Assembly: GCA_001799975.1 (NCBI GenBank)
Contig: MGUQ01000128.1
Coordinates: forward strand, 1 to 5,130
DNA from: Elusimicrobia bacterium RIFCSPLOWO2_01_FULL_54_10
GTDB lineage: Bacteria > Elusimicrobiota > Elusimicrobia > 2-02-FULL-39-32
Direction: 5' to 3'
Length of the DNA stretch: 5,130 nt
The notes under the pieces are model-generated. The model saw nothing but the letters and a program-made list of their open reading frames with translations, had not been told where the DNA came from and ran no database searches. The translations under genes were made by a program, and so were the position numbers. Positions 1 to 5,130 of this stretch are shown here, piece by piece; position 1 is the stretch's first letter, and every line of letters starts with the position of its first letter.

Positions 1-729
1 GGCGGGGAGCGCCGGATCCCGCCCCCCCGCGCGCGCCGCATCCCACATTTCATTGTCTGCCAAGCCAATTTTATAAAGACTCCACGCGGCGGCTTTCATG
101 ACCGGCCGGGCAAAGAAGATGAATCCGGGGTACGCAAACAGAATCTCCAAAAACGGCGCCAGGCGGGCCCAGCGCAAGCCGAACACTGAGGCCATGTTTT
201 GAGACCGGACGCCGCCGCTGCGAACCAGGCCAAAATCTGATTCCGGGACGACGATGTCGTTGCCCCATCCGAAATTCTTTCTAATTTTTCCTTCGGCAAC
301 CAGGTCAAAATCCGCCTTGTCGGCCAGGGGCTCAAAGAGCTTGGCGGCCCTCACCGCCCGGGCTTTCACGTCAATTAACTTTACGTTTTTGCTGGGCATG
401 GCAGGCACAAAAATTTTGGTTTTCCCGCTGAAAATCATTTGCGGGACATCAACGCTGACGAAGGCGCATGCAGGCCGTTGGATTGCTTTGACGGCTTCCT
501 CAAATATTTTGTCGTCCGGTATTGCCGGCCGGCCCCTTTCCCCCCTGCCCACGATAACTCGCGCGACTGAGTCAAATTCCTCGAGAGTGACGTTGTCAGC
601 CGTGCGAAGCAGGGCCAGGATCCGCGCCATTTGCGAAGCAGGGCGGTCCATGAAGTAGGAAGAAAAATTCTCATCATCGGGGAAAGGATTGTTCTGAAGC
701 GCTTGCAGGTTGGACATCACGGTAGGATG
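1..729 (-). other. Uncharacterised C-terminal domain of the visible protein, ending near a hydrophobic segment
   Basis: Residues 407-649 after the TAG leave the coiled-coil style. They contain mixed alpha/beta sequence (TLEEFDSVARVIVGRGERGR, then PACAFVSVDVPQMIFSGKTK and IFVPAMPSKNVKLIDVKARA). Next come a glycine-containing stretch (NFGWGNDIVVPESDFGLV) and a hydrophobic segment (WARLAPFLEILFAYPGFIFF) at 97-171 that may be a membrane or re-entrant helix. The only cysteine of this half is at residue 494. No family is recognised. The frame is still open at base 1, so the protein continues beyond the window unless the very GC-rich last 40 bases hide an error. Confidence 0.55.
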
Positions 730-1947
730 CCATTCCGTTTCTAACGCTCTCATGGCCTGATCTTGGGCTCTTTGTTGTTCCGCCAGGAGCGCGTTTTCCG
801 CAAGAGATTGATTGACCCGAGTTTGGTCCCTTTCAAAGCGGATCCGCCGGATCCACTTTCCGGTAGTCCCTTGGGAAAGATGACCGGATTTTTCAAGAAA
901 CCTTGCCGCCGGCAATAAGCCCCGCGCTTGTTCCAGAATCTCCAAGGCCGCGTCAAATTCCCCTTCTTGATCGGTATCGTAGGATTGTTGGATCAGCGCG
1001 GAAAATCGCTCCGAAAGAGTTTTCGCTTCCAGCTTGGAGCGTTCGTCTTCTGCCACCCTGGCAAGCCTTTCTTTTTCGCGAATGCGCTCCGCGTGAGCGG
1101 CAAGTAGCTCCCGCAACCGCCCCCGCACAAGCCCCTTGCCAATTTTAATCTCAGAAAGTGAATCTTTTAGTTCTGCCGAAAATTTCAGACTTTTCGCTCT
1201 TGCTTCTTCGCGCAGCCGGCTCTTTTCAGCCGTCATGGCCTCCTGATGCGCGGTAATCCGGCCGCGCAGCGCTTCCTCCGTTCCCTGAGGCAGGAATCTT
1301 TTGTGTTGCGCTTTGCGGACTGAAGATAATTTAGAACTTGCATCCTTGATCTGCGTATCAGCTTCCTCAAAGTCATTCGCAATAATGGCTGCGGCAGATT
1401 TCTCCAAGATCGCTTCAACGTCCGCAAGGATTCCCTGCGCTCTTTGAAACCGCTCCTTCTCTCGCCGCTGAACTTCCTCGCGCCTGGCTGCTGCCGCATC
1501 GTCAATGAGATCCGGTTGCGGGGCGGCCGTTTCAGCGCGGGGCGGTTTCTGAGAAGCCTCTGGCGCCGGTGCGCGTGCCTGCGGTTTAACGGCGACCGGC
1601 GTCTCCAAAACTTTTTCCGCGCGGTGTTCTTTGACGCCGCGACGGCGGATTTTTTCGGCGCCCGCCTGGCGCTTTTTGATGACGGAATGGATTCTGCGCA
1701 CGGTCCAGCGGGCCAGCTTTCCGCTCGCGAACCAGAAAGCATAGGTGGCGAATGCAGACTGCAGCCACTTCATCAGCGTCGGGGCATTCTTCATGTCTTC
1801 AACATGGCTTGACAAGAAAATGATTCCGTACGACAAGGGATAGCCGGGGGAATGCCTGAACAAGCCCATCATGATCAAATCAGTCACCGGCAGGGCAAGG
1901 GAGACAAACAGAAATGCCGGTGCGAACGTAAGCAGGAATCCGCCCAG
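1..1947 (-). CDS. Continuation of the same reading frame after the TAG: TM segments, basic region, coiled coil, unknown C-terminal domain (3' end outside window)
   Basis: The frame directly after the TAG has 649 sense codons and no stop, and runs off the left edge. Codon style matches the upstream part. Numbering from the first codon after the TAG: residues 1-26 form a transmembrane helix (LGGFLLTFAPAFLFVSLALP and following); 58-81 are a weaker hydrophobic segment; 82-113 are strongly basic; 115-148 are Pro/Ala-rich; 149-406 are charged and helical, largely coiled coil; 407-590 are an unrecognised domain; 593-617 are hydrophobic. If this were a separate gene, its start would have to be GTG 1885-1887, TTG 1876-1878 or ATG 1870-1872. 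None has a purine-rich Shine-Dalgarno sequence, and all would discard the clear TM helix encoded before them. I therefore read it as the same polypeptide interrupted by, or translated through, the TAG. Only one cysteine (residue 494) is present. Function unknown. Confidence 0.8.
   Translation of the reverse strand, partial: MGGFLLTFAPAFLFVSLALPVTDLIMMGLFRHSPGYPLSYGIIFLSSHVEDMKNAPTLMKWLQSAFATYAFWFASGKLARWTVRRIHSVIKKRQAGAEKIRRRGVKEHRAEKVLETPVAVKPQARAPAPEASQKPPRAETAAPQPDLIDDAAAARREEVQRREKERFQRAQGILADVEAILEKSAAAIIANDFEEADTQIKDASSKLSSVRKAQHKRFLPQGTEEALRGRITAHQEAMTAEKSRLREEARAKSLKFSAELKDSLSEIKIGKGLVRGRLRELLAAHAERIREKERLARVAEDERSKLEAKTLSERFSALIQQSYDTDQEGEFDAALEILEQARGLLPAARFLEKSGHLSQGTTGKWIRRIRFERDQTRVNQSLAENALLAEQQRAQDQAMRALETEWHPTVMSNLQALQNNPFPDDENFSSYFMDRPASQMARILALLRTADNVTLEEFDSVARVIVGRGERGRPAIPDDKIFEEAVKAIQRPACAFVSVDVPQMIFSGKTKIFVPAMPSKNVKLIDVKARAVRAAKLFEPLADKADFDLVAEGKIRKNFGWGNDIVVPESDFGLVRSGGVRSQNMASVFGLRWARLAPFLEILFAYPGFIFFARPVMKAAAWSLYKIGLADNEMWDAARAGGRDPALPA
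730..1503 (-). other. Long charged coiled-coil region with two TPR-like helix motifs
   Basis: Residues 149-406 after the TAG are rich in Glu, Arg, Lys, Ala and Gln with heptad-like spacing, for example AAAARREEVQRREKERFQRA, HAERIREKERLARVAEDE and ENALLAEQQRAQDQAMRA. Two stretches instead read like TPR helix junctions: NDFEEADTQIKDASSKL (1327-1377) and EGEFDAALEILEQARGLLP (910-969 region). The region may be a helical stalk or an oligomerisation element. Part of it may be single alpha helix rather than true coiled coil. Confidence 0.65.
1498..1704 (-). other. Basic juxtamembrane segment followed by Pro/Ala-rich linker
   Basis: Directly after the last hydrophobic segment the protein is densely basic (TVRRIHSVIKKRQAG, then EKIRRRGVKEHRAEKV). 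It then becomes low-complexity and rich in Pro and Ala (ETPVAVKPQARAPAPEAS, then QKPPRAETAAPQPDLIDD). This is the usual look of a cytoplasmic membrane-proximal anchor and a flexible tether that joins a membrane block to a coiled coil. Confidence 0.65.
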
Positions 1948-2385
1948 CTAGCGAGTTTGCGCGACGCGCCTTGCCTCCCACAGAATTCTGGCCAGAAAGA
2001 GCATGGCAAACACCGGCATCAACAAGAACGCGGCGATACCCTGCCGCGTTTCCGCAATCCATTGCAAATGCTTCCATACGAAAAATTGAACGTCGGACAT
2101 GATGTTTCCCAGCAAAAACTCTTCCGCGTTGTAAAAGTTGTAAAGGAGAATCAATGAAACCGTCAAGTCTCCAAGCACCGTGCCGATTTTCCACAACTGT
2201 GGCTCCGTGAGCCCGAACCATGCCGCTTCCGGGTTCGCTCCGGTATTTCTGTGGATCGCCGTTCCCAGGGCTCCTGCGCCCGCCAAGCCCGCCGCCCAGC
2301 TTGCCCACGCGGGCCATTCCAATGTGGGCAAAATGACGTTGAACTGCGGCAGATACAACAAAGCCAATATGCCGACGACTGCCAG
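1705..2385 (-). other. Membrane block of about six hydrophobic segments, with the TAG between the fourth and fifth
   Basis: Segments by position: 2329-2385 (LAVVGILALLYLPQFNVIL), 2254-2310 (AWASWAAGLAGAGALGTAI), 2131-2193 (WKIGTVLGDLTVSLILLYNFY), 1981-2040 (QGIAAFLLMPVFAMLFLARI), then after the TAG 1870-1938 (FLLTFAPAFLFVSLALPVTD), and a weaker one at 1705-1776 (WLQSAFATYAFWFASGKLAR). Flanking charges fit the positive-inside rule for all six taken together: basic before the first (RRIKR), acidic after the third (NAEE), basic after the fourth (EARRVAQTR) and strongly basic after the sixth (RWTVRRIHSVIKKR). Both large soluble flanks would then be cytoplasmic. The sixth segment is the least certain. 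Confidence 0.65.
1948..1950 (-). other. Single in-frame TAG splitting a window-long reading frame
   Basis: The codon order is GCG CAA ACT CGC TAG CTG GGC GGA. It is the only stop among 1,710 codons in this frame. It lies in a short basic loop (ARRVAQTR, stop, LGG) between two hydrophobic helices. One base change (C to T on the coding strand) would make it from CAG, Gln. It sits inside the palindrome GCTAGC (1947-1952). The base after the stop is C, which in several systems is a weaker termination context. Possible readings are nonsense mutation, base-call error, readthrough, or reassigned TAG. No hairpin obvious enough to claim as a readthrough element was seen downstream. Confidence 0.9.
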
Positions 2386-5130
2386 GGGCGCTTGGGTTCC
2401 CGAAGCCCAGTCGGGAAAGCGCTTGATTCGCCGTTGAGCCGGCGTCCTGCCCGACGGCTCACCGCGATCCATTTTATTCCGGAGATCGAGCACGGTTGTA
2501 TCGGAGACAGTCAAATCATCCGGCAAACCCCGCAGAAGGCGCCGGGCAACCATGTATTGGCGGGCATTGTAAAAGCCGATCGCTTCCTTCGCCCTGTATG
2601 CCATGCTTTCCGCTTCCGGCATTTCCCTGCTTTTTAACAGGATTCCGGCCAGCGTGCGCAAATTCCTGACATGGGCCCATTCCCTATTAGATACTCGGGA
2701 CCATTTCTCCGTAGGAGTTCTGGGTTCAAATTCCTCTAAAAATCCGGCGGCATTTTCAAAACGCCCCGTTTCGATCAATGCCTGGCCTAAAATCGAAACG
2801 ACTCCGATGGTTCTCCGGATGGCCGGATTCAATACATAGAGACCGTCAGCCCCGGCTGTTCCCAACAGGGTAACGGCTTCATCAGGCTTTCTCTCCGAGA
2901 ATTTCTCCTGCAAATGGATGGAGGCCAGGTTGGCCCTCGCCGTGTATTTCAGTCTGTGTAGATTCTCCAATCTCTCCGGGGCGCCTGAATTGGGGGAAAG
3001 GCGCGTCGCGGAAATCACCGCATTGATCTGCTCCAAGTTGCGGCGCAGCGCGGCCTCCGCGTCCTGAAAGCGTCCCAGCCGTTTCAGTACGGTAGAAAGG
3101 ACGTTTCCGGCATCAAATTGCTCCGCAATCCATCCCCTCCTGTCGCTTCCAGCAAGCTGTAGCACGCTTTCCAACGCCCATTGGGCTTGTTCCAGAATCG
3201 GGCGAAAGTTGTTCCTGGCATCCCCGTGAACGATTTCAGGGTTCGCTCGCACAAAATCATCCTGCTCCGTCAAAACAATTCTCGCCGCCTTCGTGGCAGT
3301 CTTCAGTTCCCGGGAAAACCCCATCCGGGAAACCATGCCAATTGCGGCAAGCGGATTATTGCTCCATTGTTCTTTAAAATTGTCCCGGACTCTGCTCCCG
3401 GGCGTCTCTGAATGAACAATCCCCTTCCCGATTCTGGCTAAAAGCGCAGGATAATTTGCGGGATCCCTCCGTTCCAGCTCACGAAGCACCCTCCAAACTT
3501 TTTTTGGAGAAGAATGAATCCACTCGGATAGCTGGAGGACGGCATTCCTTTCTTGCGGGCGCCGGATTATAAACAACCCTGTGCTAAGTTTCTCGACTTT
3601 GAGACCGGCGTTTTCGAAAGCGGCTATAATTTTAGCCTCTTCCCCGTAGTTCCAAATGAGGGCGCGGCCCCGTTCTGTGAGCCTGCCGGGAAGTTCCCGA
3701 GCGAATCGTTCCAGCACTTCATCCGTGCCCTTATAATCGTCCCAAAAATCCATGAGCTTTGCCGGCCGCGAATCAGGCATCAGGCCGGGCATGTTGGGCA
3801 TGTTCCAGAGAATGACATCGAATTTTCTACCCGGAAAGATTTCGGAGCCGTCCGGCGCTGTGAAAATATCCCCCGCGCGGGTAATGGGAAAGTGCTCATC
3901 CCGTTCCCATTCCCCAAAAACCGCCTCCCGATATGCGTTGATCAGACGGGAATGCTCCTTCCTCTCATCAATAAACGCATGCCACTTCTTAATCAGGTCC
4001 GGATCTTGAAGATCGGGGACAAAATAGTAATCCCCCGTATCAAAATATTCCAATTGAAGGTCATAAATTTTCTCGTTCATTCTGGAGGCCCCGGTCTTTT
4101 GATATTCTTCCTTGATCGCATCGGACAACGCCTGGGGAAGAACCGGGTACACCGCGAACGCCTGGCCGCCGGGGCCGTACAAAACGTCAAATTCAATGAT
4201 GTCAAAATCCGCAATTCCGGTGAGCTCCGCGCATTTTTGGGCATCGGCAAGTTGGAATTGCAGAGTTTCAAGGCCGCCTGCGGGCGATTTTGTCCGGTCT
4301 GTCCGCTTGGGAACTGAAACTCTTCTGAATTGAAGCCCTCCCGGGCCTTGCCGCATCGGAATGTGTTCCAGGCGGCCAATCCCCAGGGCCGTCAAAAGCC
4401 GGTCTGCAGGAACCTGTTCCGCGCCTTCCTTGGAAATTTCTTCAAACGGCTTCTGCGGGAAGCACAAATCCCGTAATTTGGCATCCATCTGCCGGGCTTC
4501 CTCCCGCAAGGCATTGAGTTCGTCCTGAATTTTTTGATCCGTTGCGGGCGCACGGCGTGCGATTCTGTTCATCTCCCTGTGGATGTTCCGCAGTCGCGTC
4601 TCAAGATTTGCATATGCGCTGAACCAGGGGTTTCGAAGCAGCGCCTCTTCGCCGTTGGCGGCCACATCCTTCAAAAATCCCGCCAAATGACGGGTGAGAG
4701 GATTCCGCTCCAGGCGCCGGACCACAACATCAAAATCATCAAAATACCGTTCCATTTGGGGGAATCGATATGTATGGAGCCAGTCAAAAAGCTCGTTGGC
4801 ATCTTTGATGTTGCGGGACGACGTTCCGTCCCCGTTGGGGATGAATCCCACCTTTGACTCCAGGAGCGGCTGGGCAAACGGATTGCTGACAAATGCCTCC
4901 CGCTCCATATCCATGAGCGCCCGGATGTCGTTATGGTCGGGAATGATCCCCACGGAAGCAAGAGAAACGCTGCCATGCGGGTTGGACCTGACCGCATGGA
5001 TGATTGAGCGTCCATACAATCGATAAATCTCGTGGGAAAGGGATTGCATCCAATCCGATCCCGCGGATGCGAGAGCTGGCGCAACGGAAGTGGCTTGCCG
5101 CAGACGCGCAAAGCTGTCGGACAAATCGTT
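1948..5130 (-). CDS. Upstream part of a very large multidomain membrane protein (degenerate methyltransferase, TPR-like, four TM), ends at TAG
   Basis: The frame is open from the window edge to the TAG at 1948-1950. A TTG at 5122-5124 would give 1,058 residues, but only two codons precede it, both sense, and no ribosome binding site is visible, so the true start is probably outside the window. Numbering from that TTG: residues 1-416 are an unrecognised helical region; 417-523 resemble the C-terminal half of a PrmC/HemK-type methyltransferase (GDIF, then FDVILWNMPNMPG); about 640-855 hold TPR-like helix pairs; 914-1048 hold four hydrophobic segments. The protein would end in a basic tail (ARRVAQTR) just after the fourth. 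There are only two cysteines, C221 and C298. The same frame continues past the TAG for 649 more sense codons. I infer that this is part of a longer gene rather than a complete one. I cannot assign a function; methyltransferase activity is doubtful because the SAM-binding glycine motif is not seen. Confidence 0.85.
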   Translation of the reverse strand, partial: NDLSDSFARLRQATSVAPALASAGSDWMQSLSHEIYRLYGRSIIHAVRSNPHGSVSLASVGIIPDHNDIRALMDMEREAFVSNPFAQPLLESKVGFIPNGDGTSSRNIKDANELFDWLHTYRFPQMERYFDDFDVVVRRLERNPLTRHLAGFLKDVAANGEEALLRNPWFSAYANLETRLRNIHREMNRIARRAPATDQKIQDELNALREEARQMDAKLRDLCFPQKPFEEISKEGAEQVPADRLLTALGIGRLEHIPMRQGPGGLQFRRVSVPKRTDRTKSPAGGLETLQFQLADAQKCAELTGIADFDIIEFDVLYGPGGQAFAVYPVLPQALSDAIKEEYQKTGASRMNEKIYDLQLEYFDTGDYYFVPDLQDPDLIKKWHAFIDERKEHSRLINAYREAVFGEWERDEHFPITRAGDIFTAPDGSEIFPGRKFDVILWNMPNMPGLMPDSRPAKLMDFWDDYKGTDEVLERFARELPGRLTERGRALIWNYGEEAKIIAAFENAGLKVEKLSTGLFIIRRPQERNAVLQLSEWIHSSPKKVWRVLRELERRDPANYPALLARIGKGIVHSETPGSRVRDNFKEQWSNNPLAAIGMVSRMGFSRELKTATKAARIVLTEQDDFVRANPEIVHGDARNNFRPILEQAQWALESVLQLAGSDRRGWIAEQFDAGNVLSTVLKRLGRFQDAEAALRRNLEQINAVISATRLSPNSGAPERLENLHRLKYTARANLASIHLQEKFSERKPDEAVTLLGTAGADGLYVLNPAIRRTIGVVSILGQALIETGRFENAAGFLEEFEPRTPTEKWSRVSNREWAHVRNLRTLAGILLKSREMPEAESMAYRAKEAIGFYNARQYMVARRLLRGLPDDLTVSDTTVLDLRNKMDRGEPSGRTPAQRRIKRFPDWASGTQAPLAVVGILALLYLPQFNVILPTLEWPAWASWAAGLAGAGALGTAIHRNTGANPEAAWFGLTEPQLWKIGTVLGDLTVSLILLYNFYNAEEFLLGNIMSDVQFFVWKHLQWIAETRQGIAAFLLMPVFAMLFLARILWEARRVAQTR
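2560..3207 (-). other. TPR-like alpha-helical repeat region
   Basis: Residues 640-855 are almost wholly helical, with TPR-style turns: LKRLGRFQDAEAALRRNLEQ (680-699), LIETGRFENAAGFLEEFEP (783-801) and LLKSREMPEAESMAYRAKEA (829-848). Each has the small/aromatic-x-x-A pattern at the helix A/B junction typical of tetratricopeptide repeats. Other helices between them (for example 725-741 and 745-755) probably complete the pairs. TPRs mediate protein-protein contacts; the partner is unknown. The repeats are degenerate, so the exact count is uncertain. Confidence 0.6.
3556..3876 (-). other. PrmC/HemK-like class I methyltransferase half-domain, motif I not found
   Basis: Residues 417-523 read AGDIFTAPDG, then GRKFDVILWNMPNMPG, then a helix containing GTDEVLERFARELPGRL, a strand GRALIWNYG, a helix EEAKIIAAFENAGL and the strands KVEKL and TGLFIIRRP. 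The order and spacing match motifs III and IV and the closing strands of PrmC/HemK-type methyltransferases, where the usual text is GD(L/I)F and (F/Y)D(L/V)IxxNPPY. Here NPPY is replaced by NMPN (441-444). In this family the glycine-rich motif I (E/D-x-G-x-G-x-G) lies about 65-75 residues before motif IV, around residues 366-376. That stretch has no such glycines. Either the N-terminal half is strongly diverged or the domain is a non-catalytic remnant. The assignment rests on motif reading alone. Confidence 0.55.
3877..5130 (-). other. Uncharacterised N-terminal region of the visible protein (helical, charged)
   Basis: This covers residues 1-416 counted from the TTG at 5122-5124. Residues 1-165 are mixed and rich in aromatic and charged residues. 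Residues 170-220 look like a short coiled coil (NLETRLRNIHREMNRIAR, then DELNALREEARQMDAKLRDL). Residues 240-420 are mixed alpha/beta in character, with FDIIEFDVLYGPGGQAF at 307-323 and an acidic aromatic stretch FDTGDYYFVPDLQDPDLI at 361-378. I recognise no family. The part just before the methyltransferase-like block is where a SAM-binding motif I should lie, and none is seen. Confidence 0.6.

What the first reader, a model, noticed from the sequence alone, without database searches (positions are those of the whole stretch)
1948..1950. A lone TAG interrupts an otherwise window-long reading frame inside a membrane block
Seen: 1,060 sense codons before and 649 after the TAG are all in one frame with no other stop. 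The 20 codons directly after the TAG encode a clean transmembrane helix but contain no ATG, GTG or TTG, and the later candidates (1887, 1878, 1872) lack a Shine-Dalgarno sequence. Charge distribution fits a six-helix topology only if the two sides are joined. Known: TAG can be read as Gln in some phage and eukaryotic codes, as pyrrolysine in a few bacteria and archaea, and can be leaky before C. Inference: either a recent nonsense mutation from CAG, a base error, or functional readthrough or reassignment that yields a short four-helix form and a long form.
Basis: partly seen in the sequence, partly recalled or inferred. Interest (0 to 1): 0.75.

Follow-up and report, generated by a model that had tools for sequence, protein, structure and literature searches.

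The report
Premature stop in a giant gene
A single stop codon sits in the middle of what is likely one very long membrane-anchored gene of an uncultured bacterium, likely of the phylum Elusimicrobiota; it is likely a recent mutation or an assembly error, and the parts of the genome examined show no sign that this codon is read as an amino acid.

Summary
In detail: one minus-strand frame fills the 5,130-bp contig (1,060 + 649 sense codons) with one TAG at 1948-1950. The window is contig C128 of a fragmented, 79%-complete MAG; two relatives of the same family are titled Elusimicrobia. Its downstream end carries the first half of a module found in ORFs of up to 13,472 codons. Own contig C28 starts inside the second half, so both are likely pieces of one gene of about 6,900 codons or more. 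The 20 codons after TAG look coding and encode a hydrophobic helix; 0 of 247 other ORF ends have such a helix there. Eleven of 11 examined ends of module-bearing ORFs finish in Ala or Gln; this one in Arg. RF1 is intact, none of 34 tRNAs has a CUA anticodon, and TAG ends 42 of 255 long ORFs, so a changed code is disfavoured. Most likely a premature stop, biological or a consensus error. I had no reads, and no homologue crosses the site.

The parts
1948..1950 (-). the in-frame TAG
   Evidence: only stop in the 1,710 codons of this frame
1951..5130 (-). upstream part of the frame, 1,060 codons, open at the contig edge; weak TPR-like stretches; ends ...LARILWEARRVAQTR
   Evidence: all Pfam hits below cut-off
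1..1947 (-). downstream part of the frame, 649 codons, open at the contig edge; helix, basic linker, charged region, then the start of the giant-ORF module
1981..2037 (-). hydrophobic segment just before the TAG (residues 1032-1050)
   Evidence: hydropathy 2.39
1891..1947 (-). hydrophobic segment directly after the TAG (residues 1062-1080), no usual start codon inside
   Evidence: hydropathy 2.09
1..207 (-). first half of the module A-S-x-x-G-x-x-W-A ... L-E ... P (residues 1642-1710) shared with giant ORFs; cut by the contig end
   Evidence: 46.4 bits against a profile built without the window row; alignment A1
3649..4200 (-). region with weak similarity to a 3,084-codon ORF of another genome of the class (residues 311-399 and 428-494)

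Best explanation
The TAG is a lone stop codon that likely interrupts what was one giant membrane-anchored gene of a likely Elusimicrobiota bacterium, where ordinary RF1-dependent termination is predicted to cut the protein inside a membrane block. Shown: the single TAG, coding-like sequence immediately on both sides, a module at the downstream end that recurs in giant ORFs, an intact RF1 gene, and TAG in use as a normal terminator. Inferred: contig C28 is the next piece of the same gene. Inferred: the change is recent, because no other stop occurs in the rest of the window's frame or in the 5,166 codons of C28 outside its N runs. I cannot separate a mutation present in the cells from a wrong base in this fragmented assembly; I rate them about equal. 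Either way no altered decoding is needed.
For: (1) The next 20 codons are coding-like: score at the 57th percentile of the window's own in-frame stretches; 18 of 247 other ORF ends reach it without a second stop; a helix after the stop in 0 of 247 ends. (2) The module at the contig end occurs in 8 of 147 class genomes sampled (own included), in ORFs of 649 to 13,472 codons, with no stop inside any of the 21 listed matches. (3) C28 of the same genome begins at module profile position about 99-101, where the window ends at about 76-81; they are the only two unpaired halves among the four matches the search listed in the own genome. (4) C28 is open along its 15.6 kb on one strand, changing frame only at its three N runs. 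(5) Of 18 module-bearing ORFs in relatives I saw the natural end of 11, and all 11 finish in Ala or Gln, against 42 of 255 long ORFs in the own sample; the window's upstream part ends in Arg. (6) RF1, tRNA, PylS and stop-use results. (7) For the error version: 112 N runs in 593,182 bp, 34 of 39 contigs or stretches affected; all three in C28 change the frame, as scaffold gaps would, though some elsewhere could be masking by the operators.
Against: No homologue of the membrane block was found: only the window itself, none (searches scored a capped list of candidates), none convincing. So no relative shows a sense codon at the site. Same-frame neighbouring ORFs occur in this genome: 30 places with coding-like flanks in the sample, at least one an antisense shadow; the window itself falls below that list's flank threshold. 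One other TAG-ended ORF (L075, 2961-4035) is also followed by 20 coding-like codons without start or stop (not followed up). Module-bearing ORFs of relatives can begin as little as 164 codons before the match. The window's codon score is below the genome average (0.12-0.14 against 0.26). The join to C28 is inferred, with about 15 residues unseen; the independent score of the C28 start is weak (14 bits), and no other own contig overlaps the window's ends.
Confidence: 0.68

Rival explanations
1. Ordinary boundary of two neighbouring genes that happen to share a frame: the upstream gene ends at the TAG and a downstream gene starts at 1887-1869 or at an unusual start codon, its hydrophobic stretch acting as a signal peptide.
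For: Same-frame tandem ORFs occur in this genome (30 places). By eye, module-bearing ORFs of relatives begin with a hydrophobic signal-like stretch in 10 of 16 N-termini shown. The distance from start to match can be short: 164, 293, 351, 792 and 929 codons in 5 of 14 ORFs. A helix followed by a basic tail is an acceptable membrane-protein end (general knowledge).
Against: The hydrophobic stretch begins directly at the TAG, without a usual start codon or a basic lead of the kind seen in relatives. A start at 1887 would leave the helix untranslated; such a helix after a stop is seen in 0 of 247 ends. The C-terminus does not fit the 11 of 11 Ala/Gln ends seen.
Confidence: 0.18
2. Functional stop: UAG is read through at some rate, or the two parts are made as two chains from one mRNA, giving a short four-helix form and a long form.
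For: Both parts are stop-free and about equally coding-like (0.116 and 0.144), so the downstream part does not look decayed. The base after TAG is C, which can be leaky in some systems (recalled). One other TAG-ended ORF, in L075, is followed by coding-like codons (not followed up).
Against: No CUA tRNA among 34; PylS below cut-off; TAG followed by C also ends 11 of 42 TAG-terminated ORFs; no unusual RNA structure around the stop (z 0.9, -0.35 and -0.98 for three stretches against mononucleotide shuffles); no Rfam match; coding score falls after TAG as after the other stops.
Confidence: 0.1
3. Local misassembly that joins two unrelated membrane genes at the TAG.
For: Fragmented assembly with many N runs; no relative crosses the site.
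Against: The frame is kept exactly, the two hydrophobic segments abut without other damage, and there is no N in the window.
Confidence: 0.04

Closest known systems
Giant ORFs of Omnitrophota and Elusimicrobiota (PMC10066038, PMC12057145 and PMC11573180; passages read)
   Same: Very long frames; for Omnitrophota described as poorly conserved, with several membrane helices and few annotated domains; Elusimicrobiota are named as rich in such proteins
   Different: The frame here carries a lone stop and is seen only as a 5.1-kb contig; the module described here is not named in the passages I read
TAG reassignment to Gln in phages (code 15; PMC9523058, start of abstract seen in a search listing)
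   Same: A TAG inside an otherwise open frame
   Different: One TAG only, RF1 present, no CUA tRNA found, TAG in use as a terminator, no viral-contig match to the query
Pyrrolysine decoding of UAG (recalled; PMC11467909 seen in a search listing only)
   Same: In-frame UAG in a bacterium
   Different: No PylS above cut-off in the genome

Membership tests
Elusimicrobiota/Omnitrophota-type giant ORF | single uninterrupted frame longer than 20 kb (threshold used in PMC10066038) | tested here: inconclusive
   Window 5.1 kb plus C28 15.6 kb on one strand would give about 20.7 kb, but the join is inferred and the TAG lies inside
Elusimicrobiota/Omnitrophota-type giant ORF | shares a sequence module with giant ORFs of related genomes | tested here: met
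   46.4 bits to the module profile built without the window; module found in ORFs of up to 13,472 codons
Elusimicrobiota/Omnitrophota-type giant ORF | several membrane helices, few annotated domains | tested here: met
   five hydrophobic segments by hydropathy, no Pfam family above cut-off
TAG reassignment (code 15 or similar) | suppressor tRNA with CUA anticodon | tested here: not met
   0 of 34 tRNAs; MAG 79% complete
TAG reassignment (code 15 or similar) | TAG no longer used as a terminator, RF1 lost | tested here: not met
   TAG ends 42 of 255 long ORFs in the sample; RF1 above cut-off, intact with GGQ
Pyrrolysine system | pylS present | tested here: not met
   best hit 19 bits, cut-off 178.15
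Programmed readthrough | conserved stop and context in relatives, or a product that crosses it | not testable with these tools
   No relative found that crosses the site; no proteomics
Nonsense mutation in a single gene | intact homologue with a sense codon at the site | tested here: inconclusive
   No homologue of the membrane block found; relatives' giant ORFs are open through their own, unrelated membrane blocks

The most novel reading that the evidence does not exclude
The TAG is a hinge in the making of giant genes: neighbouring membrane genes fuse or split by the loss or gain of a single stop codon, and here one lineage is caught with the stop in place while both halves stay functional, giving a short anchored form and, by occasional readthrough or re-initiation, the rest.
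Probability: 0.1. Interest if true: 0.6.

Novelty: new member of a known kind. Interest (0 to 1): 0.27.

Why it matters
A single stop in a gene this long bears on how giant bacterial genes persist. PMC11573180 (passage read) names the loss of stop codons that joins neighbouring genes as the most prominent hypothesis for their origin; a lone in-frame stop is what an intermediate would look like. It also warns that one wrong base or short gaps in a MAG can hide a giant gene: contig C28, open along one strand, reads as several ORFs only because its N runs change the frame.

Tried and rejected
Homologues across the site: the protein search of residues 880-1180 found only the window among 3,750 candidates; searches of the two parts found none and self among 7,996 and 7,994 candidates, capped lists; genome and viral contig scans with the whole query found none; searches of the 9 genomes held for the order gave no convincing match to the membrane block (two weak hits at E 0.03 and 0.05 not pursued). 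Pairwise scoring of the block against relatives' ORFs: best score 85 against a shuffle mean of 47.8 (sd 6.6), but it lays helices on an acidic stretch that is not a membrane block, and was judged unconvincing. A first codon-score formula had a faulty offset and its interruption list came out empty; it was replaced. Distance of the module from the N-terminus was tried as a test of continuity and is not diagnostic, 164 to more than 6,552 codons. Shine-Dalgarno absence was dropped as evidence. The structure model was too poor for a fold search. Contig-end overlap with other own contigs: none. Paper searches; among the titles and abstract starts listed I saw none on an interrupted giant gene, but bioRxiv is not held, so the West-Roberts 2023 preprint on giant genes was seen only as a citation.

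Full report
What is there. The window is the complete 5,130-bp contig C128 of a MAG of 1,890,672 bases in 129 contigs, 79.26% complete. One minus-strand frame is open from end to end except for TAG at 1948-1950, with 1,060 sense codons before and 649 after. Its six-helix charge argument is not reproduced: five hydrophobic segments at a cut of 0.9, four before and one after.

Where it comes from. A search of 41 genomes (own included) gave matches in 8, in ORFs of 831 to 10,906 codons apart from the window. Two of the relatives of the same family correspond to records titled Elusimicrobia bacterium (contig lengths 659,489 and 96,902, as for G007:C18 and G008:C5). The phylum name for the window's MAG is thus inferred from kinship. 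The module-bearing ORFs on those two contigs are 10,906 and 9,927 codons long.

The module. The end of the window (residues 1642-1710) is the first half of a module, roughly A-S-I-L-G-A-K-W-A ... L-E-W ... P, followed in relatives by a membrane block with V-F-S-x-x-H-P and L-H-x-x-Y-N. With the window row removed from the profile the window still scores 46.4 bits. In 147 genomes drawn from the class, 8 (own included) have it at E <= 0.001; none of the 21 listed matches has a stop inside.

The neighbouring contig. Own contig C28 (15,615 bp) is open along one strand over its length. It changes frame only at its three N runs and holds no stop in the 5,166 codons outside them. It starts inside the membrane half of the module: profile position 101 with the A1 profile, 99 with A2. 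A2 contains the C28 rows, so their A2 scores are by construction; the A1 score of the C28 start is independent but weak (14 bits, in a four-sequence search). The window stops at position 74-78 by match and about 81 by residue count. In the own genome the A2 search lists four matches: the window's first half, the C28 starting half, and the two parts of a second C28 module on either side of an N run. The two unpaired halves therefore fit together with about 15 residues missing. I infer that window and C28 are consecutive pieces of one gene of roughly 6,900 codons or more. The window's ends do not overlap another own contig.

Is the stop a natural end? Three tests say probably not. First, codon use: the next 20 codons score 0.159, at the 57th percentile of the window's own in-frame stretches, while other ORF ends average -0.15 (TAG, 42), -0.29 (TGA, 120) and -0.19 (TAA, 85); 18 of 247 reach the window's value without a second stop. 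Second, hydropathy: 0 of 247 ends are followed by a stretch of 2.0 or more, and 193 of 165,868 19-codon stretches taken in all frames reach 2.09. Third, C-termini: searches show 18 module-bearing ORFs in relatives. I saw the natural end of 11, and all 11 end in Ala or Gln (SA, SA, SQ, NQ, SA, SA, SQ, QQ, AA, QA, SA), against 42 of 255 long ORFs of the own sample. Of the other seven, one ran past the fetched stretch (G008:C16), and six were not fetched to an end or run to a contig edge. Two pairs among the 11 look like close orthologues. Long ORFs without the module need not follow this: 3,273- and 5,125-codon ORFs end in Lys and Gly. The upstream part here ends in Arg.

Against this: same-frame neighbours occur (30 places, not all of them real gene pairs); one other TAG-ended ORF, in L075, is followed by 20 coding-like codons without start or stop (not followed up); module-bearing ORFs can start close to the match; many start with a hydrophobic signal-like stretch (10 of 16 by eye); and absence of a Shine-Dalgarno site says little (64 of 248 ORFs have one).

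Is it read as an amino acid? RF1 matches TIGR00019 at 453.8 bits (cut-off 423.25) and is an intact 361-residue ORF with GGQ. All 34 tRNA matches received an anticodon, none CUA. PylS: 19 bits, below cut-off. TAG ends 42 of 255 ORFs of 300 codons or more in the sample, and scores after TAG fall as after the other stops. RNA folding around the stop is unremarkable (z 0.9, -0.35, -0.98) and there is no Rfam match. Since a fifth of the genome may be missing, absence of a suppressor tRNA is not proof.

Reading. The simplest account is a premature stop within one giant gene, recent because nothing else is broken in the window's frame or in C28 outside its N runs. Whether it exists in the cells cannot be told without reads. 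The assembly holds 112 N runs in 593,182 bp, in 34 of 39 contigs or stretches. Those in C28 change the frame and so behave as scaffold gaps; for the others masking by the operators cannot be excluded. A fragmented assembly makes a consensus error a serious possibility.

What the protein may do. Pfam finds nothing above cut-off in the window. C28 holds AprA-like domains: Methyltransf_36 (247 bits), AprA_N and WH_AprA above cut-off, which suggests an enzyme domain within a mostly uncharacterised membrane-anchored chain. PMC10066038 (passages read) describes giant ORFs in Omnitrophota as poorly conserved, often with several helices and of unclear, possibly adhesive or predatory role. PMC11573180 (passages read) lists Elusimicrobiota among the phyla rich in huge proteins. 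Function here stays inferred.

Noticed in passing
G007, G008, G001, G004, G005, G013 module-bearing ORFs (L010, L127, L128, L147-L151, L153-L155): Natural C-termini of module-bearing giant ORFs end in Ala or Gln, mostly -SA or -SQ, in 11 of 11 seen (of 18 such ORFs); the own 5,574-codon ORF on C19 ends -LSQ and a 3,084-codon ORF of G011 ends -QMA. This may be a sorting or processing signal.
   Followed up: partly
L081 (G000:C28): A 15.6-kb contig open along one strand that ORF callers would split because N runs change the frame; it carries AprA-like methyltransferase domains and the module twice, the first copy cut by the contig end.
   Followed up: partly
L140 (G007:C21), about 18165-18664 counted along the reversed strand: A 5,125-codon ORF ends in KERTRAFSG and another frame ends in KRTRAFSG about 500 bases on, just before a module-bearing ORF: possibly another broken giant gene with a short duplication.
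   Followed up: no
N-termini of module-bearing ORFs, e.g. G008:C5, G004:C56, G008:C24: Several start with a signal-like stretch ending in A-P-x-F-A-(E/Q)-A, so these giants probably begin by export.
   Followed up: partly
L075, ORF 2961-4035 (own genome): Another TAG-ended ORF is followed by 20 coding-like codons with no stop and no usual start, hydrophilic.
   Followed up: no
window, whole minus-strand frame: Codon use fits the genome less well than average long ORFs (0.12-0.14 against 0.26).
   Followed up: no
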